Assembly (NCBI RefSeq): GCF_020880415.1
Contig: NZ_JAJIUJ010000038.1
Span: 124,001-188,000, forward strand
Source of the DNA: Xanthomonas euvesicatoria pv. euvesicatoria
Lineage (GTDB): Bacteria > Pseudomonadota > Gammaproteobacteria > Xanthomonadales > Xanthomonadaceae
Direction: 5' to 3'
DNA: 64,000 nt
The position numbers and the translations under genes were made by a program. Below the pieces are notes generated by a model. That model had not been told where the DNA came from and ran no database searches. It saw nothing but the letters and a program-made list of their open reading frames with translations. Within the stretch, counting starts at the first letter, position 1. Every line of letters begins with the position of its first letter. Below, piece by piece: positions 1-44,759 of this stretch.

Positions 1-2889
1 TCACCGGCCGGCACGGCACGCTTGCGCGATTACGCCATCGATAGCTGGAGTTCGCGCAACGGGCTGCCGCACAACTCCTTGCGCGACATCGCCCAGACCC
101 GCGACGGGTATCTGTGGTTCGCGACCTGGGAAGGGTTGGTGCGCTACAACGGGCTGGAATTCAGCGTGATCGACCGCAGCACGCGCCCGGGGCTGCCCGA
201 TAACGGCGTCGGCGCGCTGTATGTAGATCGCGATGGCGCGCTGTGGCTGAGCGATGCGCGCGGCAATCTGGTCCGGCATGGTGCCGACGGGCAATGGCGA
301 CAGTGGCAGCGGCAAGGGCAGTGGCCGCAGGCGTTGATCCATGCCATGACCATGGATGCCGAAGGCCGCATGTGGCTGTTGTTCGAAGGGCACGGGCTGG
401 GCTGCCTGTGGCCGGATGGGCGCTTCGACTATTTCCCGCCGCACGATGACGCACCGCTGCAGAGCAGCTTTCCGCGCATGGTGGTCGATGCGCAGGGGCG
501 CTTGTTGATCGGCACCTTCGATGGATTGATCTACCGCGAACCGGATGGGCGCATGCACCGCGCGCCGGCCGCATTCGGGTTTCCGCCGGGGTTGGCATGG
601 CCGTATCGCGCAACGGACGGCACGGTGTGGGTGGTTGCGGGAGATCAGCTGTATCGCCTGCAGGGCGAGCGCGCCGAGCTGATGCATCGGGTGCCGGGGC
701 AGGGTCACTTCACCGCGATGCTGCAGGATCGCAATGGCGACCTGTGGCTGGGCAGCGAAAACCAGGGGCTGCTGCGGATCGGGCCGTACGGCGTGGAGCA
801 TCTGCCGGCCGGTCGCAGCCTGCCGACCGGGCGCATCGTCAGTCTGCGCGAGGACGCCGAAGGCAGCATCTGGGTCGGCGCAAATGGCGGTCTGTTCCGG
901 CTGCGCGAGACACTGTTCAGTCGCTACAGCCAGCGCGATGGATTAAGCGGCGACTACAGCCGCGCCATGTTGGAAGACCGCGACGGCAGCTTGTGGATCG
1001 CCGGAACCGCCGGCCTGGACCGGATGCTGCCGGACGGGCGCATCGTGGCGGTGCCGGTGGCCACACCATCGGGGCGACGCCTTTCGGTGCTCAGCCTGGC
1101 GCTGGACCGGCACGGCGATCTTTGGGTAGGCACCTATGCCGATGGTGTCTTCGTGTTGCGCGCCGGGCGCGTGCTGCGCCATTACGGCGAGGCCGAGGGC
1201 ATTCCCGGCGGGCATATCCGCGCGATCGTGATCGACGACCACGAGACGGTATGGCTGGCAACCCAGCGTGGCGTGGTGCAGCTGGTGGATGGCAAGCGCA
1301 CGCCGTTGGCGATCGACGGCTTGCCTGCCAGCGTGGTGACCGCATTGGCCAACGTCGATGGCGCGGTGTGGATCGGTTCGGTCGATGGTGCGGCAGTGCT
1401 ACGCAACGGCAAGCTGCGCCAGTTGAATCTTGAGCAACTGGGCGGCGCGCGCAGCGTATTCGGTTTTCAGGCCATCGGCGATGCCATGTGGATCGCGACC
1501 GACCGCGGGTTGTATCGCGAGCGCAATGGCGTTCTCGCACGCGTGGGTCTGGAGCAGGGGATGCCGGTCGATACGGTGTTCCAGCTTGTCCAAGACCGGC
1601 TTGGCAATGCGTGGATCAGCAGCAATCGCGGCGTGCTGCGTACCGAATTCAAAACGCTCGATGCAGTTGCCGATGGGCGCGGCACGCTCGCGATCGAACG
1701 CTATGGCGAGATTGATGGCATGGGCAATGCACAGGCCAACGGCAGTTCCGGCCCCAGCCTGCTGCGGCGCGCCGACGGCACGGTGTGGGTGGTGACAGCT
1801 GGCGGGGTAAGCATGGTCGACCCCTCACGTCTGCAGCGCTTTCGCGAACGTCGCCCGCCGCCGGCAGTGATCGAGAACGCGCAGCAGGATGGCCGCCCGT
1901 TGGTGTGGCGCCAGCGCGCCCAACTGGCTGGCGGGCATCGCTTGAACGTGTCCTACGTCGGCATGAGCTTTCTGCTGCCGGAGCGAATCGAGTACCGCAC
2001 CCGGCTGGAAGGCCTGGACAACACCTGGACCGAACGCGGCCGGCAGCGCAGCGTGGAATTCATCGGCCTGCCGCCGGGCCGATATCGTCTGCACGTGGCT
2101 GCGCGCCATCCGGGCGGGGCATGGAGCCCGCACGAAGCGGTGTGGGCGTTCGAGGTATTGCCGCTGTGGTGGCAACGCCAGGATGTGCGCTTTGCCGCGG
2201 CGCTGGGGGCGCTCTTGCTGCTGGCCCTGCTGTATCGGGTGTTGCTGCATCGCTACAAGACCCATAACGCGCGCCTGGCCGAGCTGGTGCGCAAGCGCAC
2301 CGAAGACCTGCAACGGCAGGCGCAGCGCTTGCTGCAGGCCAATCAGGAAAAGAGCGAGCTATTGACGCGTTTGCGCATCAAGTCCGATGTGTTCGAGCGC
2401 CAGGCGCACGAAGATGCATTGACCGGGCTACCCAACCGTCGCCATTTCGACGAAGCGCTGGCGCGCGATATCAGCCGTGCACGGCGCAGTGGGCGGCCGC
2501 TGGTGCTGGCGATTCTGGATATCGATCACTTCAAGCGCATCAACGACCATTATTCGCACGCCAGCGGCGATGCGGTCCTGCACGAGGTGGGAGTGCTCCT
2601 GACGGCGGCCGCGCGCGCCTCGGATCTGCCGGCACGCCTGGGCGGCGAAGAATTCGCGCTGCTATTGGCCGACACCACGCTGGACGAGGCACAGGCGCTT
2701 TGCCTGCGCATCCGCGCGCTCTTCCACGCCCGTCACAACTGGGCCAGCGTCGAGGGCTTGCAGGTGACCTTCAGCGCCGGTGTTGCCGCGCTGCGCGACG
2801 ACGACACCGGCTCGTCGCTGATGCAGCGCGCCGATCACGCCTTGTACGAGGCCAAGAGCGCCGGCCGCGATCGGATCTGTGTGGGTTAG
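1..2889 (+). CDS. Two-component-propeller sensor diguanylate cyclase (5' end outside window)
   Basis: The frame is open from the first base, so the signal peptide and true start lie upstream. Residues about 1-630 (counted from base 1) are repeated Reg_prop blades with motifs such as DGYLWFAT and DGSLWIAG. A Y_Y_Y domain follows (about 644-720), then one membrane helix (about 729-750), a short coiled coil and a C-terminal GGDEF domain. The active-site motif is GGEEF at about 881-885. The metal-binding LDIDHFK motif is present, and an RASD inhibitory I-site lies five residues before GGEEF. Family knowledge: a periplasmic propeller senses a ligand and the cytoplasmic domain makes c-di-GMP from two GTP. 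With the GGEEF and I-site intact, it should be active and product-inhibited. The ligand cannot be inferred. Confidence 0.93.
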   Translation, partial: SPAGTARLRDYAIDSWSSRNGLPHNSLRDIAQTRDGYLWFATWEGLVRYNGLEFSVIDRSTRPGLPDNGVGALYVDRDGALWLSDARGNLVRHGADGQWRQWQRQGQWPQALIHAMTMDAEGRMWLLFEGHGLGCLWPDGRFDYFPPHDDAPLQSSFPRMVVDAQGRLLIGTFDGLIYREPDGRMHRAPAAFGFPPGLAWPYRATDGTVWVVAGDQLYRLQGERAELMHRVPGQGHFTAMLQDRNGDLWLGSENQGLLRIGPYGVEHLPAGRSLPTGRIVSLREDAEGSIWVGANGGLFRLRETLFSRYSQRDGLSGDYSRAMLEDRDGSLWIAGTAGLDRMLPDGRIVAVPVATPSGRRLSVLSLALDRHGDLWVGTYADGVFVLRAGRVLRHYGEAEGIPGGHIRAIVIDDHETVWLATQRGVVQLVDGKRTPLAIDGLPASVVTALANVDGAVWIGSVDGAAVLRNGKLRQLNLEQLGGARSVFGFQAIGDAMWIATDRGLYRERNGVLARVGLEQGMPVDTVFQLVQDRLGNAWISSNRGVLRTEFKTLDAVADGRGTLAIERYGEIDGMGNAQANGSSGPSLLRRADGTVWVVTAGGVSMVDPSRLQRFRERRPPPAVIENAQQDGRPLVWRQRAQLAGGHRLNVSYVGMSFLLPERIEYRTRLEGLDNTWTERGRQRSVEFIGLPPGRYRLHVAARHPGGAWSPHEAVWAFEVLPLWWQRQDVRFAAALGALLLLALLYRVLLHRYKTHNARLAELVRKRTEDLQRQAQRLLQANQEKSELLTRLRIKSDVFERQAHEDALTGLPNRRHFDEALARDISRARRSGRPLVLAILDIDHFKRINDHYSHASGDAVLHEVGVLLTAAARASDLPARLGGEEFALLLADTTLDEAQALCLRIRALFHARHNWASVEGLQVTFSAGVAALRDDDTGSSLMQRADHALYEAKSAGRDRICVG

Positions 2890-2892
2890 ACG

Positions 2893-2930
2893 CCGGGATT
2901 CGGGAATCGGGATTTGGGATTGGCAACGGC
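2893..2930. repeat. GGGATTCGGGAATCGGGATT-type intergenic repeat
   Basis: Short degenerate tandem units of GGGATTYGGGATT just after the cyclase stop codon, ending in GGATTGGCAACGGCAG. The same tail occurs at about 27384-27419. This is a recurrent Xanthomonas intergenic motif. No function is known to me. Confidence 0.7.
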
Positions 2931-2937
2931 AGTGCAG

Positions 2938-2990
2938 GCGTTCCTTCTCCTGCACGAGAAGGTGCTCAAAAGGGCGGATGAGGGTACGGC
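2938..2990. repeat. Partial TTCTCC/GGAGAAGG-type intergenic repeat
   Basis: TTCCTTCTCCTGCACGAGAAGG followed by AAAGGGCGGATGAGGGTACGG. It resembles the longer elements at 47603-47740 and 54205-54345. It can fold as a short hairpin and may help end transcription of the upstream cyclase. Confidence 0.5.
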
Positions 2991-3079
2991 AGCAAGCAGC
3001 AGTGCTGCGTCGTGATCAAACGGTTGCGGCTCGTGCTTGGTAAACGTACGCGATTGGCCGCTTCAATCCAGAAACCACG

Positions 3080-3118
3080 ACGCTTTTGCCAATCCCGAAT
3101 GCCCAATCACGAATCCCG
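3080..3118. repeat. Inverted copy of GGGATTCGGGATT-type repeat
   Basis: CCAATCCCGAATGCCCAATCACGAATCCCGTCC is the reverse-complement version of the repeat at 2893-2930. The two copies face each other across a short spacer between two convergent genes. Confidence 0.6.
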
Positions 3119-3121
3119 TCC

Positions 3122-3763
3122 TCACACCGGCCCGGGCCAGGCGTTGGCGATCTTGCAGAACAGGCGTGCGGTCTGTTCGGTGTCGTAGACCGCGCTGTGG
3201 GCGTCGGCGGCATTCCAGTCCAGTCCTGCGGCCTGGGCGGCGCGTGCCAGCACGGTCTGGCCATAGGCCACGCCAGCCAACGTCACCGTGTCGAACACGC
3301 TGAACGGATGAAACGGGTTGCGTTTGTGGCCCACGCGCGCCACGGCGGCGTTGAGAAAATTCAGATCGAAATGGGCGTTGTGGCCGACCAGGATTGCGCG
3401 CTGGCAGCCGTATTTCTTCACTGCTGCGCGCACCGGCGCGAACACATGGTCCAGCGCGTCCTTTTCCTGTTTCGCGAAGCGGAACGGGTGGTCGAGCACG
3501 ATACCGGTGATTTCCAGCGACTTCGGGTCTATCTCCAGCCCGGGCGCCGGCACCAGGTGCGCGCTGGCGGTCTCGCCGGGAAAGAAGCGTCCGTCGGTAT
3601 CCATCTCGATCGGCACGCAGGCGATCTCCAGCAGTGCATGCTTGTTCCAGTCGAACCCGCCGGTTTCTACGTCCACCACCACGGGCAGATAGCCACGAAA
3701 GCGGCGCGACATCGGCAAAAAAGAGGGGGCAGGCTGTGCATCGACCGGTTCGTTCATCCGCAT
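3122..3763 (-). CDS. rnt: Ribonuclease T
   Basis: A 213-residue DEDDh 3'-5' exoribonuclease that trims the CCA end of tRNA and matures stable RNA 3' ends. Exo motif I DVETGG is at residues 31-36, motif II GHNAHFD at 127-133, and motif III contains AHSAVYDTE with His189 and Asp194. All acidic and histidine active-site residues of the family are visible. Length matches the family (about 200-215). A start at the second Met (MNEPVD) is equally possible and would remove two residues. The gene converges on the sensor cyclase, with repeats in the gap. Call is secure. Confidence 0.96.
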
Positions 3764-3960
3764 AGCCTAGCAGGTCGCACGCCGTGCTCTGCCCCGGCTG
3801 CAGGCTGGCACGCTCACACCGGCGGCAGCGACGCCGCGACGATTCGGTGCACGGCCACTCGAGTGGCGTCGGCGTGCATTGCCGGCCCACCGTCTACGCG
3901 CGTCTTCCCCGAACCGGGCGACTGCAGACCACACAGCGACAGTCGCCATACACCGAAATG

Positions 3961-3995
3961 AAAAGGCCCGATCCGCGTTGCCACGGACCGGGCCT
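3961..3995 (-). terminator. Rho-independent terminator after rcnB-like gene
   Basis: Arms AGGCCCGATCCG and CGGACCGGGCCT (one mismatch) flank an 8-nt loop. On the minus strand the hairpin ends in a short T run. It lies 26 bp beyond the stop codon of the His-rich gene. Confidence 0.75.
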
Positions 3996-4020
3996 CCCTA
4001 ACGACACGGTGAGCGAGCCC

Positions 4021-4428
4021 TTAGCGACCCGCGACGACGCTGGTAATCAGCCCGGTGGCCACTGCGATCAGCACGTAGGTGTTATCCACGCGACGCCATT
4101 CGTGCCCGCGCGGCGGCGGCTTGAGATGGTGCTTGTGGTAGTCGGCAACGCGGCTACCACGATGGTCCGGTGCCAGCCGCTCGCCGCGGCGATACGGCGG
4201 GCCGCGGCGCTCGTTGCGATGATCCTCGTGATGCGCGTTGCGGCGATCGTCGCGCCTGTCGTCATGCCTGTCGTCGCGGTGATCGTCATGGCGGTCAGGA
4301 CCATGGTCGTCGTGACGCTGCGCATTGCGGTCACGGTCGTGATCCAGCTCGTGCTGCTGCGGTGCTGCAAACGCTGCGCCAGAGGTCAGCAGCGTCAAGG
4401 CCATGAAGGATCCAACGAAACGTTTCAT
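4021..4428 (-). CDS. RcnB-family His-rich periplasmic protein
   Basis: 135 residues. A signal peptide (about 1-22, ending GAAFAA) is followed by a very His/Asp/Arg-rich segment (about 25-75) with repeated HDDHRDD units. A C-terminal RcnB-like region contains WRRVDNTYVLIAVATG and a short hydrophobic end. RcnB of E. coli is a periplasmic protein linked to nickel/cobalt export; this protein shares the architecture but is far richer in histidine. A role in periplasmic metal binding is inference. No rcnA is adjacent. It has its own terminator, and 110 bp separate it from phoU. Confidence 0.7.
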   Translation of the reverse strand: MKRFVGSFMALTLLTSGAAFAAPQQHELDHDRDRNAQRHDDHGPDRHDDHRDDRHDDRRDDRRNAHHEDHRNERRGPPYRRGERLAPDHRGSRVADYHKHHLKPPPRGHEWRRVDNTYVLIAVATGLITSVVAGR

Positions 4429-4538
4429 CAGCGGACTCCTGGGTCACAGGAAATGCCTGTGCAGCTGCACCGTAGAAGTTTCAAGCTGAATACGTAATGA
4501 GAAGGCCTTGCGGCGCCTCACGGCAACGCTGCCGCGGT

Positions 4539-5249
4539 CTAGATGACGCCGGTGCTGCTGGTGTCGTCGCGCTTCACCCGCGGAGGCAAGGGCTGCTCGC
4601 CATGCACCAGGAACCACACGTTCTCGGCGATGTTGGTGGCGTGGTCGCCAATGCGTTCCAGATTCTTTGCCATGAACAGCAGATGCGTACACGGAGTGAT
4701 ATTGCGCGGGTCTTCCATCATGTAGGTGAGCAGCTCGCGGAACAACGCGGTGTACTGCGCATCCAGGCGTGCATCTTCGTCGCGGACACGGATCGCCGCA
4801 TCGGCATCTTTGTTGCGATACGCCTGTACGGCTTCGCGCACGGCATCGGCCGCCATCTGGCCAAGCGCGCGCAGGCCCACGGTCTGCGGCAGCGGCGGTG
4901 CGGAATTGAGCGCGATCGAGCGCTTGGCCACGTTGGCCGCGTAATCGCCGATACGTTCGATATCGGCCGGAATCCGCAGGCCTGCAAGAATTTCACGCAG
5001 ATCGCGCGCCATCGGGCCGCGCAATGCAAGCCGCATCACGTCGTGGCTGATCGCATGCTCCAGTGCGTCGATCGCCTCGTCGTTGACCACGATGCGGTGC
5101 GCGGCGTTGTCATCGCGACGCTCCACCACATCCAGTGCGGCTTCCAGCTGCGCCACCGCCGTCTCGCCCATGCGCACGATCTCGGCGACAAGACGGTGCT
5201 GCTCCTCGTCGTAGCTTTTGACGATATGGTCGTTGAGGTGCTGGTTCAT
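4539..5249 (-). CDS. phoU: Phosphate transport system regulator PhoU
   Basis: 236 residues made of two PhoU helical repeats. Typical PhoU metal-binding motif stretches occur in each half (RIGDYAANVAKRS and RIGDHATNIAENVWF). It links the Pst transporter to the PhoR/PhoB two-component system and keeps the regulon off when phosphate is plentiful. The start chosen is MNQHLND; upstream in-frame Met codons would add a poor N-terminus. It is the last gene of the pst cluster, 128 bp after pstB. Confidence 0.96.
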   Translation of the reverse strand: MNQHLNDHIVKSYDEEQHRLVAEIVRMGETAVAQLEAALDVVERRDDNAAHRIVVNDEAIDALEHAISHDVMRLALRGPMARDLREILAGLRIPADIERIGDYAANVAKRSIALNSAPPLPQTVGLRALGQMAADAVREAVQAYRNKDADAAIRVRDEDARLDAQYTALFRELLTYMMEDPRNITPCTHLLFMAKNLERIGDHATNIAENVWFLVHGEQPLPPRVKRDDTSSTGVI

Positions 5250-5377
5250 CGTGGTCTCGATTCGTGGCAGTGGTGGATGTCCGCCGTAACCTTGGCGACA
5301 TGGCACATGATGCAAATGTCGTGCCGGGCGGTGCGGCGGAACTGCGTCAATGCGGCGTTGCGCTGGCGCGCCTTACA

Positions 5378-6208
5378 TCAACCGAAGCGGCCGGTGATGT
5401 AGTCCTCGGTCTGTTGCTTGGATGGCTGCGAAAAAATGGTTTCGGTGCGGTCATGCTCGATCAGGTCGCCCAGGTACATGAAGGCGGTATAGTCGGACAC
5501 GCGCGCGGCCTGCTGCATGTTGTGGGTGACGATCACGATGGTGTAGTCCCGCTTGAGCTCTTCCACCAACTGTTCGATGCGGCTGGTGGAAATCGGGTCC
5601 AGCGCGGACGTCGGTTCGTCCAGCAACAACACATCCGGGCGCAGCGCCACCGCACGTGCGATGCACAGGCGCTGCTGCTGGCCACCGGAAAGCCCCAGTG
5701 CGCTCTGCCCCAGCTTGTCCTTCACCTCGTCCCACAGCGCGCCCTGGCGCAAGGCCTGCTCGACGCGGTTCTGCATGTCGGCCTTGGACAGCTTTTCGTG
5801 GTGGCGGATGCCGTAGGCCACGTTTTCGAAGATGGTCATCGGAAACGGCACCGGCTTCTGGAACACCATGCCCACCTTGCTGCGCAGGCGGTTCATCGGG
5901 TACTTCGGCGACAGGATGTTTTCGTTGTCCAGCAACACCTCGCCGCGCGCTTCCATCTTCGGATACAGCGCATAGATGCGGTTGAAGATGCGCAGCAAGG
6001 TCGACTTGCCGCAGCCGGAGGGACCGATCAACGCGGTGACGCGCTTTTCGGGAATCTCGATGTTGATGCTCTTGAGCGCGTGGTACTTGTCGTAATAGAA
6101 ATCCAGATTGCGTGCGGCCACCTTCACCGGCTCCTGCGCCGTCGGCGCCCCCGTGGCGGCCGGAACAGCGATGCGATGCATCGGCTTGGCGTTTTGGAGA
6201 TCGTTCAT
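5378..6208 (-). CDS. pstB: Phosphate ABC transporter ATP-binding protein PstB
   Basis: 276 residues. Walker [10 protein letters not shown] is at 62-70, the ABC signature LSGGQQQR at 173-180 and Walker B LLLDEP at 194-199, followed by the switch histidine in THNMQQA. It energises phosphate import by the PstSCAB complex. The start MNDLQN lies 22 bp after the pstA stop. An alternative in-frame ATG at 6238 would overlap pstA (ATGACTGA), so translational coupling from that codon cannot be excluded. The ~30-residue extension before the ABC domain is longer than in E. coli. Confidence 0.97.
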
Positions 6209-6230
6209 GTCGGGTGTCCGGAGGGAAAGG

Positions 6231-7100
6231 TCAGTCATTGGAAATCTTGTTGCGCAAGAGCAGGGCACGCGCACCCAGGCTCACCAGCAACACGAACACG
6301 GTCAGTACCAGCGCGCCGGCCCAGGCCAGCGTTTGCCAGGTGTCGTACGGGCTGCCGGCGAATTGATTCATGATCACCGGCACGCTGGCCATCGGCTGGA
6401 AGATGTTGCTGTTCCAGTACTGGTTGCCGAATGCGGTGAACAGCAGCGGTGCGGTTTCGCCGCTGATGCGCGCCAGTGCCAGCAGCACGCCGGTGACGAT
6501 GCCTGCCGAGGCGCTGCGGTACAGCACCTGCACGGTGACTTTCCACTGCGGAATGCCCAACGACAATGCGGCTTCACGCATCTGCGCCGGCACCAATCGC
6601 AGCATTTCGTCGGTGGTACGCACCACTACCGGCAGCACGATGAAGGCCAGCGACAGTGCGCCGGCGAATGCCGAAAAGCGCCCACCGGTCTGCATCACGT
6701 ACAAGGTGTAGACGAACAGGCCCAGCACGATCGAGGGCGCCGACAACAGGATGTCGTTGACGAAGCGCACCACCACGCCGGCCTTGCGCGCATTGCCGTA
6801 CTCCGCGAGCCAGGTGCCTGCGGCGATGCCCAGCGGCGTGCCGATGGCCAGCGCCAGCCCGCACATCACCGCACTGCCGAAGAAGGCATTGAGCAGGCCG
6901 CCTTCCTGCATCGGCGGCGGCGTCATCTTGGTAAACAGGTTGAGGTCGATGCCCGGCACGCCCTTGGACACCAGCGTCCACAGGATCCAGGCCAGGAAGA
7001 ACAAACCAAACAACGCAGTGACGCAGGAGAGCAGCAACGCAATGGCGTTGACGACCCGGCGGCGGTTGTACAGCGATTGCGACACCGAAGCGGCGGACAT
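6231..7100 (-). CDS. pstA: Phosphate ABC transporter permease PstA
   Basis: 289 residues with six predicted membrane helices and the permease EAA-type loop ([16 protein letters not shown]). It forms the phosphate channel with PstC. Its ATG overlaps the pstC stop by one base (TGATG), so the two are probably translated together. Confidence 0.96.
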
Positions 7101-38140: not shown

Positions 38141-38677
38141 ATGGCCGACTTCAACGCGTTCTTTCCGACCTTGCTCAAACACGAAGGCGGTTTCGTCAAC
38201 GATCCCGTCGATCCGGGCGGAGCCACCAACAAGGGCATCACCCTGTCGACCTTCAAGGCCTGCGCGCAGAACCTGCTGGGCATCGAGCCAAGTCTGGCGA
38301 ACCTGCGTGCGTTGACCGACGCCCAGGCTGGGGTCATCTACAAGGCGCAGTACTGGGACCGGCTGCGCGCCGATCAGATCGCGCTGCAGCCGTTAGCCAA
38401 CATCGTGTTCGACTTCTACGTCAACGCCGGCAACAACGCCATCAAACTGCTGCAGACCGTGCTCAACAGCCAGACCGGCGGCAAGTTGGTCGCTGACGGC
38501 CGCATGGGGCCGGCCACCTTCGCGGCGCTGGCATCCAGCAACCAGCAAGACCTGTATGCACGCTACAAGGCCGGCCGCAGGGACTATTACCACAGGCTCG
38601 TCGCAGCGCGACCGGCGCTTGGCAAGTTTCTCAAGGGCTGGCTGGCGCGCGTGGATTCCTTTCCCGACTCGGTCTGA
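38141..38677 (+). CDS. GH108-family muramidase (endolysin-like)
   Basis: 178 residues. The catalytic Glu15 lies in KHEGGFVNDPVDPGGATNKG, the hallmark of glycoside hydrolase family 108, and a PG_binding_3-like C-terminal half follows (YVNAGNNAIKLLQ). It should cleave peptidoglycan. There is no signal peptide, as in phage-type endolysins and secretion-system muramidases. Heads a run of eight same-strand genes. The start is preceded by an inverted repeat. Confidence 0.9.
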   Translation: MADFNAFFPTLLKHEGGFVNDPVDPGGATNKGITLSTFKACAQNLLGIEPSLANLRALTDAQAGVIYKAQYWDRLRADQIALQPLANIVFDFYVNAGNNAIKLLQTVLNSQTGGKLVADGRMGPATFAALASSNQQDLYARYKAGRRDYYHRLVAARPALGKFLKGWLARVDSFPDSV

Positions 38678-38719
38678 GCCGGCAGCGGCCCAGCGACACT
38701 TCCTACCGACGAGCCCGAC

Positions 38720-39250
38720 ATGGCGCAGATATCCCTCAATGATCTGATCGAAGCACTGGCTGGCGCGGTCATCGACGCCCAGGACCGGATCGAGCAACAC
38801 CAGATGGCCAACCTGGGTGCGTTCTTCGACGAAGACAACCGTCCTAGAAGCGTCCTGATCCGCTTGCCGTCGCAGCACCCGGAAGCGGGTGAGAACGACG
38901 AAGACCTGTATCGGGCACCGCTGTTGCCGCTGGTGTCGTCCAACGTCCTGCGGATCAAGGATGTAGAGATCAGTTTCGATGCACAGCTCGGTGAACTCAG
39001 CGAGCTGGACGAAGCAGGCGTGCCGGATGCGTTGGCGGTTCCATCCGTCGTCGAGGACTGGCATCCCAAGCCGCCGGCGCTGCCAGGCCAGATTGGCATC
39101 GATCTCGGCTCCAACGCAAAAAATGCACGAAACAGTGCGGTGCACGTCGTGTTGCGCGTGGAAGGCAGCGAGCCGACCGAGGGCGTGGCACGTCTCATCA
39201 ATCGCCTTGCGCAGTCGCAAGGTGTGTTCAAGACGGTCAAGGGAGAGTAA
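38720..39250 (+). CDS. DUF2589-like protein A
   Basis: 176 residues, soluble. It shows the layout of the DUF2589 protein next to it: an N-terminal helical segment with LIEALAGAVIDAQDRIE, then APLLPLVSSNVLRIKDVEISFD, and a C-terminal VHVVLRVEGSEPTEGVARLINRL. The last two segments align with PLLTLVNVPNLSIQTVDVTFD and YHVALHAEDRGTPEGLSRVLD of the neighbour. Function unknown. 42 bp after the muramidase. Confidence 0.75.
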   Translation: MAQISLNDLIEALAGAVIDAQDRIEQHQMANLGAFFDEDNRPRSVLIRLPSQHPEAGENDEDLYRAPLLPLVSSNVLRIKDVEISFDAQLGELSELDEAGVPDALAVPSVVEDWHPKPPALPGQIGIDLGSNAKNARNSAVHVVLRVEGSEPTEGVARLINRLAQSQGVFKTVKGE

Positions 39251-39301
39251 CGCCCGCCGTCATCGCTTTCTTCTTAAACAACCGTTCTTCAGGAGAACAT
39301 C

Positions 39302-39919
39302 ATGAGCGATATCGTCAACATGTCCGACCAGTTCAAGGGCCTGCCGATGGCAGACCTGATCGGCGCTCCGCTGCGTGCAGCCTGCGATGCGCAGGTCATG
39401 CTGGCACGGGCCACCGCCGACTTCATCAAGGTCATCGGCTTTCTGCCGCCGACCGACCCTGCCGATCCCAACGGGAACGGCGGCACGCGCACCGCGCAGT
39501 TCAAATTCAAGCGCCCGGTCGAAGACCCTAGCGGTACCGGCATGGCAGAGGAAGAAGTCGAGATCGTTGTACCGCTGTTGACCCTCGTCAACGTCCCCAA
39601 CCTGAGCATTCAGACCGTGGACGTCACCTTCGATATGGAAGTCAAATCCTCGTTCTCGGAAAAGGAAGCCGAAGACAAGAGCCTCAAGGTGGATCTGGAA
39701 GCCAGCGTCGGCTGGGGCGTCTTCAAGGCCAAGGTCAACGTGCAGGGCTCCGTGTCCAGCCACAAGGAAAATACCCGCTCTTCGGATAACTCGGCAAAGT
39801 ATCACGTCGCGCTGCACGCCGAAGATCGCGGCACGCCCGAAGGCCTGTCGCGTGTGCTCGACATCCTGCAGACCGCTGCGGCCCCACGCAAAGTCACCGC
39901 ACCTGTGCCGGTGCCGTAA
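39302..39919 (+). CDS. DUF2589 protein B
   Basis: 205 residues. The clearest family member of the three: MADLIGAPLRAACDAQVMLARATADFI, then a beta-rich part with PLLTLVNVPNLSIQTVDVTFD, a Lys/Glu/Ser-rich centre and a Pro-rich end. Family function unknown to me. AGGAG ribosome-binding site; 51 bp after protein A. Confidence 0.85.
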   Translation: MSDIVNMSDQFKGLPMADLIGAPLRAACDAQVMLARATADFIKVIGFLPPTDPADPNGNGGTRTAQFKFKRPVEDPSGTGMAEEEVEIVVPLLTLVNVPNLSIQTVDVTFDMEVKSSFSEKEAEDKSLKVDLEASVGWGVFKAKVNVQGSVSSHKENTRSSDNSAKYHVALHAEDRGTPEGLSRVLDILQTAAAPRKVTAPVPVP

Positions 39920-39965
39920 CGTCGCTAGTGCGTCCCGTACTTTCCCCTAACCCGAGTCGTTGCCG

Positions 39966-40226
39966 ATGATGGATTTTTCAGAAGTCAGTTTCATCAAGCG
40001 CATCGTCGTCGGCAGCGACAACCCGGCAAAAATGCAGACTGCCGAGCAGGTCGAAGCCGCGCAGCAGTTGCTCAATCGCTGCCTCAGCGAAGCGCCCAGG
40101 GGGGCAATTCTCGGAATCGAGAAGAGCTTCAATATCCTGCAGTTGGGCGAGCACCAGGTCGTGCTGCAATGGCTGTGCTACCACGTCGGGTTCAAGCGCA
40201 AGCCGGTCTGGCTGACGGAGGCATAG
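39966..40226 (+). CDS. Small unknown protein of the DUF2589 cluster
   Basis: 86 residues starting at tandem ATG codons. No membrane segment or signal. Composition is ordinary for a folded protein, with SFNILQLGEHQVVLQWLCYHVGFKRKP near the end. No family recognised. The next ATG follows its stop codon directly. Confidence 0.7.
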   Translation: MMDFSEVSFIKRIVVGSDNPAKMQTAEQVEAAQQLLNRCLSEAPRGAILGIEKSFNILQLGEHQVVLQWLCYHVGFKRKPVWLTEA

Positions 40227-40700
40227 ATGGCACGTGCGAGCTATTGCCTCGACACCTTCGTGGAGCTGCTCGACCAGGCCGTCCGACGCGCGCAACAGCG
40301 GTGCCGCCAGCGGCACGCTGCAGTCGTAAATGCCGCGGCGGCCGCATGCGACCTGTGGGTGCAGTGCATGGATGCAGAGCAAACGGCGCAGGCCGAAACG
40401 GCAACCCTGTTCTCCATTCCTGTATGCCAATTGCGTGCGCTGCGGCTGCAGCAAATCAGCGAGCTTTCGTTGACGCTGCAAGTGCAGATCGAGCCGGTCA
40501 CGCAGGCCGACGGTGCACCCGGGTTGGCATTGCGTCTTGCGCCGCCAGATGGCCGTACGCCTGGGCATACGCTGAAGATCAGCTATCAAGGAGCCGAGCG
40601 TCCGCGTGGCGTGCTTTGGTTCGATGGTGTCGCACTGAAGGAGTGGACGCTGCACCCGTTCATGGACGTGCCACTATCCGATCCAGGAGCGCTGCGGTGA
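40227..40700 (+). CDS. DUF2589-like protein C
   Basis: 157 residues. A helical N-terminus (about 1-50) is followed by TATLFSIPVCQLRALRLQQI, matching in pattern the PLL.LV....L.I..V.I.F segment of proteins A and B. It then has a beta-rich half. I read it as a divergent third member; this is by eye. The stop overlaps the next start as GTGA. Confidence 0.65.
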   Translation: MARASYCLDTFVELLDQAVRRAQQRCRQRHAAVVNAAAAACDLWVQCMDAEQTAQAETATLFSIPVCQLRALRLQQISELSLTLQVQIEPVTQADGAPGLALRLAPPDGRTPGHTLKISYQGAERPRGVLWFDGVALKEWTLHPFMDVPLSDPGALR

Positions 40701-41035
40701 GGCTGCTGCTGTCGGATGCCGATGCCCGGGCGCTCGCCGAGCGGCTGGGAACCGATGTGGCCGCCTTGCATGCAGATCTCTGTCGGCAGTCCCGGCGCAA
40801 GCTGCGATCCAGCTTCGTCATCTGCCTGGTCGTTGTTCTGGTTATCGCTGCGTTCGGTGTGCTGAGCGGCAGCGTGATCGATCTCTCCATGCTTTCCAAT
40901 TTCTTATCGGAGCTTTTTCATGGCTGGTCAACATCGCTATCGACATCACATTTTGCGCATCACCTCGGCACTTGCCTTGTGTGTATCGCTGACCGCAGCG
41001 CAGGCAGCTCCGGCGGGCGGGATTCCGGCTGGTGA
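40697..41035 (+). CDS. Single-pass membrane protein of the DUF2589 cluster
   Basis: 112 residues from a GTG start overlapping the previous stop (GTGA). About 38 soluble residues (RLLLSDADARALAERLG) and a basic patch RRKLRSS are followed by one strong membrane helix (FVICLVVVLVIAAFGVLSG), then a short tail. The last ~115 bp overlap the next gene in another frame. No family recognised. Confidence 0.6.
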   Translation: MRLLLSDADARALAERLGTDVAALHADLCRQSRRKLRSSFVICLVVVLVIAAFGVLSGSVIDLSMLSNFLSELFHGWSTSLSTSHFAHHLGTCLVCIADRSAGSSGGRDSGW

Positions 41036-41663
41036 CTGGCGCGGCATCCTGTCCGCCAGCGGCAGTGCTGGGCCGGTCTACGTCCGTCTGAGTGCGCGCG
41101 CGGCTGGAGGCGAGGGTACCCAGGTGGCGGATCTGCGATTCGGGCCTCCCTACAATTGCGCGCTCGAGTTGCGCGCGCAGCCGGACGGGTATGGTTTGCT
41201 GTCGCGCAATGGCGGCAAGTTCTGCGAGGCGCTGACCGGCGGGCTTGCCCAACTCCAGATCGCAGAGGGTGGGGCGCACGGGATGCAGCTCACCTTGTCT
41301 GGCAGCGCCTCGCCGCTCGTCGTCGCCCTGAGTCAGAGCAGTGCTGGATTGGCCGAAGCCGGGCGCTGGCGTGGGGCGGGGCTGATCTCCGCCCAGCTGG
41401 AAATCGTGGCGACCACGATCCGTCCCGGCGACGTGCTCGGTCGCCTGCGTTACGGTGCTCCACGGGATTGCCAGGTGGAATTGCGCTATGCCGGGCGTGC
41501 AGCAGGTGCGTTGAATGCCTGGGTCGTGGCCAACGATAGAGGCTATTGCCGTCAGCTCAGCGATGCCCAGGCCAGTCTGCAGGTTCGTGCAGATGGCAGT
41601 GCCGAGCTTGCATTGCTGTTGAAGGGACAGCGAGAGACGGCGCTGTTCGAGCGGATGCCTTGA
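40920..41663 (+). CDS. Secreted two-repeat protein of the DUF2589 cluster
   Basis: 247 residues. A signal peptide ends about residue 29 (AAQA). The mature part holds two copies of one domain, about 39-130 and 146-235. Each starts with WRG, has LRFGPPYNC or LRYGAPRDC in the middle and a second Cys later (GKFCEAL and GYCRQL), then a beta-strand-rich end. This suggests a duplicated domain with one disulfide each. No family recognised. GGAG ribosome-binding site. Confidence 0.75.
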   Translation: MAGQHRYRHHILRITSALALCVSLTAAQAAPAGGIPAGDWRGILSASGSAGPVYVRLSARAAGGEGTQVADLRFGPPYNCALELRAQPDGYGLLSRNGGKFCEALTGGLAQLQIAEGGAHGMQLTLSGSASPLVVALSQSSAGLAEAGRWRGAGLISAQLEIVATTIRPGDVLGRLRYGAPRDCQVELRYAGRAAGALNAWVVANDRGYCRQLSDAQASLQVRADGSAELALLLKGQRETALFERMP

Positions 41664-41702
41664 GGTGTCGTAGCCGCGTGGCTGCCAGTAAGGACGTCAT
41701 TT

Positions 41703-42701
41703 ATGTGGAAGCGAGCCAGTCGGCGCGCCGGCCTACGACGACGCGCAGTGGCCCAGCCGGTCCCGCCGGCGGATTTCGGCGGGCCGGCATTTTCCAGCGT
41801 GCTCGAACAACTGGAGCTCGAATGCCGGGCGATGGTGTCCTACGCACTGAAGCAAGGTCTGGCGATGTCTCCCGATCTGCCTGGCCGGCTGGCAGAGCTG
41901 CGCGTGATGCCTGGCGCCTCCTTGCACGGCGAATCCGGCGCGCGCGAATTGGCCGGTCTGCACCGACAGCTGGTGCGTGCGATCCAGCCGGCAACGCCGC
42001 AGGCGGTGGTGCTGATCGAGCGCGAGCGCCTGCGCGGTGGCTGGTTGCGCTGGCTGGGGCCGATTCCGTTGATCCGCACCTTGACCTTGACCTCGGTCGG
42101 TTGCCTGGCCTCAGTGGTCGGTCTGGCAATGTCCAGCCTGGTGAACGAGCACAACATCACGCTGGGCTTCCTCGCTTCCTCGGGGAGCACGCTGGGCTGG
42201 AATGTGATGTTCATCCTGGCCTGTGCCGGACTCGGTGCAGCGTTTTCCGCGTTGTTCCAAGCCCATCGTTACGTTGCCGACGCAACATACGATCCGCGCT
42301 TCGATTCCTCCTATGCCGCGCGCATGATCCTCGGTCTCATCGCTGGCCTGATCCTGGTGGAGTTGCTGCCGGAGAATCTTTTTGCTGACAGCAGCCTGGG
42401 CGCGTTCGGAAAGCCCGCACTGGCGATGATGGGCGGCTTCTCGGCAAGCGCGGTGTATCGCCTGCTGCAACGCATGGTCGAGGTCATGGAAACGGTCGTG
42501 CGCGGCGATTCCGGCCAACAAGCCGCTGCCGCGATCCAGTCGCAGCGTGCGTCGGCCGAATCCGAAAGCATCCGCGCCCGTGGCGAACTTGCCGCGGGTC
42601 TGTTGGACCTGCAGCGTGAGATGCAGGCCGATCCGCGCCTGGATCAGGTGCGCCAGCAACTGACCGGCCTTGCCAGGCAGATGATGTCAGACGAGTCCTG
42701 A
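41703..42701 (+). CDS. Multi-TM protein with C-terminal coiled coil
   Basis: 332 residues. A soluble N-terminus (about 1-110) precedes four likely membrane helices between about 118 and 260 (around LTLTSVGCLASVVGLAM, VMFILACAGLGAAFSAL, MILGLIAGLILVELL and LAMMGGFSASAVYRLL). A Gln/Glu/Arg-rich coiled coil forms the last ~70 residues. No family recognised. It could be the membrane anchor of the cluster. Confidence 0.75.
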   Translation: MWKRASRRAGLRRRAVAQPVPPADFGGPAFSSVLEQLELECRAMVSYALKQGLAMSPDLPGRLAELRVMPGASLHGESGARELAGLHRQLVRAIQPATPQAVVLIERERLRGGWLRWLGPIPLIRTLTLTSVGCLASVVGLAMSSLVNEHNITLGFLASSGSTLGWNVMFILACAGLGAAFSALFQAHRYVADATYDPRFDSSYAARMILGLIAGLILVELLPENLFADSSLGAFGKPALAMMGGFSASAVYRLLQRMVEVMETVVRGDSGQQAAAAIQSQRASAESESIRARGELAAGLLDLQREMQADPRLDQVRQQLTGLARQMMSDES

Positions 42702-43073: not shown

Positions 43074-43787
43074 ATGATGAAGACACGTATCGTCGTCGCT
43101 GCCGATCGCACCATCCTTGTGGAAGGGATGGTCGCTTTGCTGCAAAAGGTTCCCGGTATCGAAGTGGTAGGCCATGCAGAAGACGGGCTGGCATGTCTTC
43201 AGATCGCCGCCAGAGAGCGCCCTGATATCGTTCTGGTGGATGTGCTCCTACCCGGCCTCAATGGTATCGATCTGACGCGGCGCTTGATGCAGCGCAGCCC
43301 CAACAGCCGGGCAATCTGTATCGCTCCGTCCGATGCCTGTACCCAGGCCAGCGCAGTCTTCGAAGCTGGCGCCAAAGCATATCTGGCGCGAACCAGCCGT
43401 TTTGCCGAATTGCTGCGGGCAATTCAATGCGTCATCCAGGATCAGACCTACATCAGCCCGCAGATGTCGCGTTCGCTGATCGCCGGGCTGCGTCGAGCCG
43501 CCAAGGCCGATTCGGCCTACACCCGACTCACCTCACGCGAGCGCGAAATCGTGCAGCTCTATTCGGAAGGCCTGTCCACCAGGCAGATCGCCAACCGCTT
43601 GCACCTGAGCGTGAAGACGGTGGGGACGCATCGCGAAAACTGCATGTTGAAGCTCAATATCCAAAGCATCGCTCAGCTGACCCGTTATGCGATCGCCCAG
43701 GGCCTTTCTCCGCTTGAAGCTGCAATCGACGGTAACAGTGAGTCATCCGATGGCTGCGTAGCGCAGCACATGCGCCGTGCCGGCTGA
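43074..43787 (+). CDS. LuxR/NarL-type response regulator with degenerate receiver
   Basis: 237 residues. The receiver keeps Asp56 in VLVDVLLPG, but one of the two metal-binding acids is missing (AADR), the Thr/Ser position is Ala84 and the usual Lys is Arg106 (YLART). The C-terminal NarL-type helix-turn-helix is standard (LTSREREIVQLYSEGLSTRQIA). No sensor kinase is adjacent. It may act without normal phosphorylation. Whether it controls the upstream cluster is unknown. Start MMKTRIV; the longer frame is rejected. Confidence 0.88.
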   Translation: MMKTRIVVAADRTILVEGMVALLQKVPGIEVVGHAEDGLACLQIAARERPDIVLVDVLLPGLNGIDLTRRLMQRSPNSRAICIAPSDACTQASAVFEAGAKAYLARTSRFAELLRAIQCVIQDQTYISPQMSRSLIAGLRRAAKADSAYTRLTSREREIVQLYSEGLSTRQIANRLHLSVKTVGTHRENCMLKLNIQSIAQLTRYAIAQGLSPLEAAIDGNSESSDGCVAQHMRRAG

Positions 43788-44123: not shown

Positions 44124-44759
44124 TCAGCGCGTCGTATCGACATCCAGCGCCGCCTGCATCAATGCTGCGATGGCGTGCGCGTCTTGGTCGGCTTGCTGCG
44201 TCAGGAACTGGGCGACACTGCGTTGATTGCCGGCCGGGTGGTTCTGGCTCAGCTTGAAGGTGAGCTCGATGCGGCTTGGAACGAAGCGGAAGCCGACCAG
44301 GCCGCGCAATTGCCGGCGATGACTGTCGCGCTCCATTTCGAACTGCCAATCGCTGCCCACGCGCTGCTCGAAGTGCGCGCTCATGCGCGCAATCAGACTG
44401 CCCAGCGCGTTTTCATCGCTCACCTGGTTGCAGCGTCCATGCAGGTGCGCAACGGCGTAGTTCCAGGTGGGCACACGCGCAGCTGCGTTTTTGTCCAGGT
44501 ACCAGGTGGGCGAGACATAGGCATGCGGGCCCTGCAACACCATGACCGCGTCGCCAGCAGTGCGCGCCTGCGGATTGGGGCGTGCCCAATGGCCTTCGAT
44601 CACGACATCCTGGCCATCGCGCTGATACAGCACCGGCAGGTGCGAGATCGCCGGCTGCCTGTCCTCGTCCTGGCTGATCAGGGTGACGAACGCATCGCGC
44701 GCGAACAGCCAGTCCAGCAAGGCCAGATCGGTCTGCGCAAATGCGCGCGGGGCGTACAT
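44124..44759 (-). CDS. PaiB-type FMN-binding protein
   Basis: 211 residues of the PaiB (FMN-binding negative transcriptional regulator) family: MYAPRAFAQTD at the start, HLPVLYQRDG, ARPNPQAR, VSPTWYLDK and VPTWNYAVAHLHG. The family has a flavin-binding split barrel. The cellular role here is unknown. It begins one base after the previous gene, at the end of the asnS operon. Confidence 0.9.
   Translation of the reverse strand: MYAPRAFAQTDLALLDWLFARDAFVTLISQDEDRQPAISHLPVLYQRDGQDVVIEGHWARPNPQARTAGDAVMVLQGPHAYVSPTWYLDKNAAARVPTWNYAVAHLHGRCNQVSDENALGSLIARMSAHFEQRVGSDWQFEMERDSHRRQLRGLVGFRFVPSRIELTFKLSQNHPAGNQRSVAQFLTQQADQDAHAIAALMQAALDVDTTR

What the first reader, a model, noticed from the sequence alone, without database searches (positions are those of the whole stretch)
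38141..42701. Candidate undescribed envelope-linked operon built on DUF2589 proteins
Eight same-strand genes with short gaps or overlaps: GH108 muramidase, two DUF2589-type proteins, an 86-aa protein, a third DUF2589-like protein, a one-TM protein, a secreted duplicated-domain protein and a multi-TM coiled-coil protein. The mix of a wall-cutting enzyme, paralogous soluble subunits, membrane anchors and a secreted part looks like one machine (assembly, secretion or lysis). No phage structural or integrase genes flank it.
Basis: partly seen in the sequence, partly recalled or inferred. Interest (0 to 1): 0.78.

Follow-up and report, generated by a model that had tools for sequence, protein, structure and literature searches.

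The report
Non-phage lysis-like cassette with DUF2589
A group of eight bacterial genes that pairs a cell-wall-cutting enzyme with a family of proteins of unknown role turns out to be a widespread cassette, gained or lost as a block, that probably lets bacteria open their own wall to release proteins, and no description of it was found.

Summary
The eight-gene operon is real. It occurs in 6 of 35 genomes of this Xanthomonas group, always beside the same border gene. A B-C-D core (two DUF2589 paralogues, one 86-aa protein) recurs in gamma-, beta-, alpha- and delta-proteobacteria and two Bacillota MAGs. Decisive observation: 68 of 85 loci carry one wall hydrolase with the DUF2589 genes, of different families: GH108 here; GH19, GH24, a PG_binding_1 protein (GH46-like), PF11860 or Amidase_3 elsewhere. 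All 66 counted by cluster lie on the DUF2589 strand; none has a hydrophobic N-terminus. Some loci add a phage-type holin (11, by cluster) or toxin genes (EndoU plus partner 7, DNase-like 2, Tle1-like 1). This fits a domesticated release cassette that works like a type 10 secretion system, but no spanin and, here, no holin was recognised. C's fold is unresolved (pLDDT 69, no match). One viral lineage carries the DUF2589 pair near a holin-like gene. Of 13 further, mostly distant loci, 3 show a hydrolase. How it acts (pore, gate or scaffold) is inferred. DUF2589 is named in one held paper, in passing. New variant of a known kind.

The parts
38141..38677 (+). A: GH108 muramidase with PG_binding_3, no signal peptide seen; the exchangeable wall-hydrolase slot
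   Evidence: Pfam and PHROG endolysin matches; match below cut-off to NCBIfam holin-associated N-acetylmuramidase, 116.4 against 240 bits; the only GH108 match in this genome
38720..39250 (+). B: short DUF2589 paralogue
   Evidence: PF11655 2.8e-26; homologous to C
39302..39919 (+). C: long DUF2589 paralogue; helix/sheet core plus an unresolved amphipathic region at residues ~106-173
   Evidence: PF11655 6.2e-49; AlphaFold2 model, mean pLDDT 68.9; beta moments
39966..40226 (+). D: 86-aa signature protein (KRIxVG...NP, GEHQVVLQ, YHVGFxRKP)
   Evidence: 74 of 85 loci by cluster, L041 and L042 by profile; alignment
40227..40700 (+). E: third DUF2589 paralogue
   Evidence: hhalign to B prob 96.6
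40697..41035 (+). F: GTG start, short motif then one TM segment; joined to E in one reading frame in Pseudoxanthomonas L066
40920..41663 (+). G: secreted-looking protein, two copies of a two-cysteine domain
   Evidence: 42 of 85 loci by cluster
41703..42701 (+). H: three-TM protein that, like the holin of Luteibacter/Rhodanobacter/Luteimonas, comes after G
   Evidence: 17 of 85 loci by cluster
43080..43787 (+). LuxR/NarL-type response regulator next to the cassette, not found at 16 cassette-less sites
   Evidence: PF00072 1.2e-17, PF00196 1.7e-17; no tblastn hit at 1e-5 in L179-L194
37323..37985 (-). border of the site: carbonic-anhydrase-like gene (my naming, not family-scanned), matched in 35 of 35 genus genomes
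44124..44759 (-). other border: PNPOx-like gene (my naming, not family-scanned)

Best explanation
It is a chromosomal, non-prophage release cassette that works like a type 10 secretion system. A wall hydrolase without export signal (A) is made in the cytoplasm when a regulator switches the operon on. Three DUF2589 paralogues (C, B, E) with D form a complex held at the inner membrane through F; together with a membrane protein (H here, a holin elsewhere) it opens or gates the inner membrane so that the hydrolase reaches the wall. G acts outside the inner membrane, either restraining the hydrolase or protecting the cell. The result is regulated release of proteins, toxins in some lineages, by local wall opening or by lysis of some cells. 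Shown: gene content, partly conserved order, exchangeable hydrolase, lack of a hydrophobic N-terminus, recurrence with holin and toxin genes, a fixed site with presence and absence. Inferred: complex formation, pore or gate role, role of G, control by the regulator, release itself.
For: Exactly one member of five hydrolase clusters in 66 of 85 loci, 66 of 66 on the DUF2589 strand, 51 of 66 directly adjacent, 0 of 245 genes lying seven or more genes away; L041 GH24 and L042 Amidase_3 make 68 of 85. Distant DUF2589 pairs: L044 GH19, L129 GH24 and L038 GH46 plus PG_binding_1. 0 of 66 hydrolases have a hydrophobic N-terminus against 28 of 42 G proteins (called ORFs trimmed to the median length of the cluster). 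Phage holin phrog_2359, 3e-12, in L068 and its cluster in 11 of 85 loci; of 31 GH108 loci 11 have the holin, 14 have H, none both, 6 neither. EndoU nuclease cluster plus partner gene in 7 loci, 3 of 7 scanned; colicin-DNase-like cluster in 2, one scanned; Tle1-like in 1. Regulator clusters within four genes in 59 of 85 loci (the largest, c3, is mixed). E and F in one frame in L066. DUF2589 pair near a holin-like gene in viral contigs L145/L146.
Against: No spanin and, in the window, no holin was recognised. C is kept in the 11 loci that have a holin, so C cannot simply replace it. In 17 of 85 loci I recognised no hydrolase (L059 and L062 are cut by contig ends). Of 13 further loci scanned with my profiles, mostly distant DUF2589 pairs, 10 showed none, two of them short contigs. 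DUF2589-related genes are reported in Archaeoglobus (PMC3949148, one passage), and archaea have no murein (recalled). No fold match for C. No cargo gene is evident in Xanthomonas itself. The holin was scanned in one locus and its cluster covers a few related genera.
Confidence: 0.48

Rival explanations
1. Antibacterial toxin module: the wall hydrolase and the other enzymes are effectors aimed at competitors, DUF2589/D are their carrier or chaperone, and G is a periplasmic immunity protein.
For: The payload varies: hydrolases, EndoU plus partner, DNase-like and Tle1-like genes. G looks secreted, with two invariant cysteines in 20 aligned rows, and stays with an open frame, without A-D or H, at 3 of 16 cassette-less Xanthomonas sites. 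Another Xanthomonas has a TrbL/VirB6 gene and a lipase-like gene below cut-off in the same site.
Against: One hydrolase per locus that largely follows the lineage of C (9 changes for 7 labels against 30.3 in shuffles, 61 labelled rows of 82). G is called in only 42 of 85 loci. No known delivery apparatus was recognised in the block.
Confidence: 0.2
2. Abortive defence: infection triggers the DUF2589 complex, which lets the hydrolase kill the cell.
For: Patchy presence (6 of 35 genus genomes; 9 of 398 phylum genomes), empty sites, exchangeable killer enzyme.
Against: No PADLOC match at 0.1 for 10 proteins scanned: the window's eight, the L068 holin and c8; secreted G and the toxin genes are not explained.
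Confidence: 0.1
3. Remnant of a phage late region under decay, without present function.
For: Hydrolase, holin and the viral contigs L145/L146; partial cassettes at 4 of 16 sites.
Against: Protein conservation of B, C and D across classes; no match to C in 50,697 phage records; no PHROG for B-H of the window at 0.01.
Confidence: 0.08
4. C is a beta-pore-forming protein that itself makes the hole in a membrane. (A narrower form of the best explanation.)
For: Stretches 106-115, 131-135, 141-150 and 166-170 have mean beta moments of 0.50-0.62, against a shuffle mean of 0.25 and 95% point of 0.51; GWG is kept in 23 of 33 rows; the region is unresolved between resolved strands in both models.
Against: The moments lie near the 95% point and are averages over related rows, not a formal test; a helical stretch (26-30) reaches 0.47 as well; ordinary beta proteins can look like this; Foldseek found no pore protein at a meaningful E-value.
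Confidence: 0.2

Closest known systems
Type 10 secretion systems (Serratia ChiWXYZ, Yersinia YenLC, Salmonella TtsA)
   Same: Endolysin outside a phage and without signal peptide, with a regulator nearby and, in some lineages, a holin and toxin genes; A resembles the holin-associated muramidase model below its cut-off
   Different: DUF2589 proteins and D are not among the parts named in the sections read; no spanin recognised; no holin recognised in the window
Phage holin-endolysin-spanin cassettes
   Same: PHROG endolysin match of A; PHROG holin match in L068; DUF2589 pair near a holin-like gene in L146
   Different: Chromosomal site between non-phage genes with empty counterparts; C not found in 50,697 phage records
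Pfam DUF2589 (PF11655)
   Same: B and C are over the cut-off
   Different: The family has no assigned function; the one held paper that names it does so in passing and none names PF11655

Membership tests
DUF2589 (PF11655) | match over the curated cut-off | tested here: met
   B 93.1 and C 166.7 bits against 23; E only by profile comparison
Type 10 secretion system | endolysin encoded outside a phage | tested here: met
   A is GH108; the site is empty in 11 of 16 cassette-less genomes fetched
Type 10 secretion system | holin in the cluster | tested here: not met
   no holin match for window proteins; a holin cluster is in 11 of 85 related loci
Type 10 secretion system | spanin(s) | tested here: inconclusive
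   no spanin family match; some G relatives look like lipoproteins by eye, but nothing shows spanin function
Type 10 secretion system | cargo released in an endolysin-dependent way | not testable with these tools
   needs experiment
Phage lysis cassette / prophage | phage structural, packaging or integrase genes nearby | tested here: not met
   the left border gene is in 35 of 35 genus genomes and the borders meet at empty sites; of the eight proteins only A matches PHROGs at 0.01; genes beyond the borders were not family-scanned
Anti-phage defence system | match to a PADLOC model | tested here: not met
   10 proteins at 0.1
Beta-pore-forming protein | known pore-forming fold | tested here: inconclusive
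   models with pLDDT 63.5 and 68.9; no Foldseek match at 0.001

The most novel reading that the evidence does not exclude
DUF2589 proteins are a new class of envelope-opening machine: a complex of up to three paralogues, with D and a membrane anchor, that forms a regulated gate or beta-pore for whichever wall hydrolase is encoded beside it, and so defines a release system distinct from holin-spanin type 10 systems, present across proteobacteria and some Bacillota.
Probability: 0.25. Interest if true: 0.85.

Novelty: new variant of a known kind. Interest (0 to 1): 0.63.

Why it matters
It would give a first functional setting to a protein family that has none, take type 10-like release beyond the enteric bacteria in which the papers seen here studied it, and offer a natural experiment in which one core has been joined to six kinds of wall enzyme. 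Whether type 10 release is lytic is disputed (PMC10847048, sections 4 and 10 read, says lytic; PMC13284979, abstract, says non-lytic); this cassette gives new systems in which to test it.

Tried and rejected
Tried without result: Pfam, PHROGs, NCBIfam and PADLOC for D to H; solved-structure searches with C alone and with profiles of C, D and G (best E-value 0.087); Foldseek of model 1 against PDB and of model 2 against PDB and viral models; three leukocidin chains at E 5.2-9.2 are noise and were not used. H (c6) and another membrane family, c17, share a look-alike motif but are not related by profile (prob 0.1). Promoter and terminator scan found nothing. A prophage was rejected for the window by the empty sites. 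The first gene calls were replaced by a codon-model call, because antisense shadows hid B and D; that call still misses F, C and D of L042, D of L041 and other small genes, so cluster counts are lower bounds. The 85 loci are 80 of 242 relatives (the best kept) plus the window, L039, L040, L041 and L042; L039 and L108 are the same place, so 84 are distinct, and near relatives are over-represented. The control is distance within the same loci, not random genomes. The neighbour listing was cut, so the loci without hydrolase were read only in part.
Full report
What is there. The eight genes are at the stated place, all on the + strand. A is GH108 plus PG_binding_3; B and C are DUF2589 over the Pfam cut-off; D to H match no family over a cut-off. 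At 0.01 PHROGs recognise only A, as endolysin. Profile comparison shows that B and C are homologous (prob 97.1), that E is a further paralogue (96.6 to B), and that c8, a neighbour in beta-proteobacteria, belongs with E (94.5). F has one hydrophobic segment and H has three; G carries two copies of a domain that most other loci have once. A is the only GH108 match in this genome.

Site. Near-identical loci are named X. phaseoli, X. cissicola, X. arboricola, X. codiaei and X. cannabis, so the genome is taken as a Xanthomonas. DUF2589 is in 6 of 35 genomes of the genus. The left border gene is in 35 of 35. I fetched the site in 16 of the 29 genomes without DUF2589. In 11 of 16 the hits of the two border genes end 108-117 bp apart, an empty site; in 3 of 16 F and an open G remain, with E matched over 26-100 of 157 residues; in 1 of 16 only A (59% identity) and D (46%); in 1 of 16 other genes, one of them TrbL/VirB6, fill the site. 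The cassette is thus present or absent largely as a block at one place.

Distribution. PF11655 is rare: 9 of 398 genomes of the phylum, 3 of 369 of the class and 4 of 289 of the class of G179, each count including the centre genome, with some genomes in more than one draw. A pattern scan of named genomes gave 242 relatives of C; the best 80 were kept, from Xanthomonas, Luteibacter, Rhodanobacter, Luteimonas, Pseudoxanthomonas, Pseudomonas, Paraburkholderia, Collimonas, Massilia and kin, Roseateles/Mitsuaria, Methylotenera, Azospirillum, Brevundimonas, several records titled as delta-proteobacterial groups and two Oscillospiraceae MAGs. With the window and four more loci this makes 85 (84 distinct). 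B and C are both called in 81 of 85 (C of L042 is found by profile). D is in 74 of 85 by cluster, plus L041 and L042 by profile. G is in 42, H in 17 and the holin cluster in 11.

The exchangeable hydrolase. 66 of 85 loci hold exactly one member of five hydrolase clusters: GH108 31, GH19 24, a PG_binding_1 protein (c20) 7, GH24 2, PF11860 2; 66 of 66 lie on the DUF2589 strand, 51 directly adjacent, and 0 of 245 genes lying seven or more genes away is one. Family names rest on one to three scanned members per cluster. L041 (GH24) and L042 (Amidase_3) raise the count to 68 of 85. The catalytic part of c20 has no Pfam match of its own, but the c20 profile matches the L038 protein at 5.5e-7, which is GH46 plus PG_binding_1. 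Outside the 85, 13 further loci were scanned with my profiles, mostly distant DUF2589 pairs: 3 have a hydrolase (L044 GH19, L129 GH24, L038) and 10 show none, two of these being contigs of 3-4 kb. None of the 66 has a hydrophobic N-terminus, whereas 28 of 42 G proteins do, so these look like cytoplasmic, endolysin-type enzymes that need a way through the inner membrane. On a tree of C, with 61 labelled rows of 82, the label needs 9 changes for 7 labels (six hydrolase kinds and the DNase-like gene) against 30.3 in shuffles: it largely follows lineages, with some swaps, for example GH24 in Pseudoxanthomonas near GH108 relatives, on weakly supported branches. Near-copies inflate the contrast with the shuffles.

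Partners. The holin (L068; phrog_2359 at 3e-12) and H are not found together: of 31 GH108 loci 11 have the holin, 14 have H, none both and 6 neither; where G is called, both come after it. F recurs in Pseudomonas and a Rhodospirillales MAG, and in Pseudoxanthomonas L066 it is one frame with E, which suggests that the DUF2589 complex is tied to the membrane. Regulator clusters (LuxR-containing c3, which is mixed; OmpR-type c7; AraC-type c9) lie within four genes in 59 of 85 loci. Seven loci, six of Pseudomonas and L112, hold an EndoU nuclease cluster with a signal-like N-terminus by eye, with a small partner gene in 7 of 7 that may be its immunity protein (EndoU scanned in 3 of 7). Two Bacillota loci share a colicin-DNase-like gene (L103 scanned), L042 has a Tle1-like gene, L121 a metallopeptidase-like gene below the cut-off.

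Phage link. tblastn found no match to C, or to the viral C, in 50,697 phage records at 0.01. A pattern scan of 2.9 million viral contigs confirmed three with a relative of C. One (L144) looks like a bacterial cassette with GH108, C and D; two (L145, L146), whose C proteins match at 100% and so count as one lineage, carry B and C, in L146 after a tail-fibre gene (phrog_9942) and before a holin-like gene (phrog_1296 at 1e-3) and a gene below the cut-off for Phage_Mu_Gp36. This fits descent from a phage late region, or pick-up by a phage; the direction is not shown.

Structure of C. Two AlphaFold2 models reach mean pLDDT 63.5 and 68.9. The second has helix 16-46, strands 64-74, 81-91, 101-107 and 170-175, and helix 180-192; residues 122-161 are below 50. 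The alternation of hydrophobic residues is raised in four stretches between 106 and 170 (0.50-0.62; shuffle mean 0.25, 95% point 0.51), and also in a helix (0.47 at 26-30). Foldseek gave no match at 0.001. The fold is open; a beta-pore is a hypothesis only.

Reading. The anatomy is that of a release cassette: an enzyme without export signal, membrane proteins, a secreted protein, a regulator, and toxin genes in some lineages. Type 10 secretion systems are described as holin/endolysin/spanin clusters outside phages (PMC10847048, sections 4 and 10 read), and whether they lyse the cell is disputed (PMC13284979, abstract and outline). [quoted passage not shown] that TtsA is a GH108 enzyme is recalled, while A matches the NCBIfam holin-associated muramidase model below its cut-off. 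The window fails the holin criterion and the spanin criterion is open, so I say it works like a type 10 system and do not file it as one. Against the reading: no hydrolase recognised in 17 of 85 loci (two cut by contig ends) and in 10 of 13 further ones, DUF2589-related genes in an archaeon (PMC3949148, one passage), no evident cargo in Xanthomonas, and an unresolved fold. The orphan G genes would also suit an immunity role in a toxin module, the main rival.

Novelty. The term DUF2589 occurs in 1 of 5.39 million held papers, in passing, and PF11655 in none. Searches that combine lysis-cassette terms with Xanthomonas or EndoU listed papers on phages, endolysins and holins, seen as listings only and capped (6 of 6, 10 of 20 and 8 of 995 papers). 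Only the held open-access library was searched. In this check I mended wording and counts, added the 10 of 13 further loci without hydrolase, and left the odds as they were, since that result was known when they were set.

Noticed in passing
L180 (unnamed Xanthomonas genome), 1325-6459: The same chromosomal site holds, instead of the cassette, a TrbL/VirB6 gene (4.5e-29), a lipase-like gene below cut-off and small genes without function; it may be a type IV secretion effector cluster, so the site may attract competition modules.
   Followed up: partly
L145 and L146 (viral contigs): A DUF2589 pair in one phage lineage, in L146 between a tail-fibre gene and a holin-like gene.
   Followed up: partly
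L148 position 5977-6267: A D homologue (41%) on a 194-kb viral contig; my profiles found no DUF2589 gene in the 12 kb held.
   Followed up: no
L124, L125, L112 and four more loci: EndoU nuclease cluster with a signal-like N-terminus, each with a gene of ~90-118 aa of one family beside it (one member scanned, no Pfam match): a likely toxin and immunity pair.
   Followed up: partly
L128 (Vibrio plasmid): B-C-D near a HlyD/ABC exporter pair and a gene annotated as a toxin-type glycosyltransferase; my profiles found no hydrolase.
   Followed up: no
L032 / L047 (X. phaseoli): Gene B lies in two frames, so this copy of the cassette may be decaying.
   Followed up: no
L185 5998-6825: A GH108-like gene and a D-like gene side by side without any B or C match at 1e-5: D may partner the hydrolase.
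   Followed up: no
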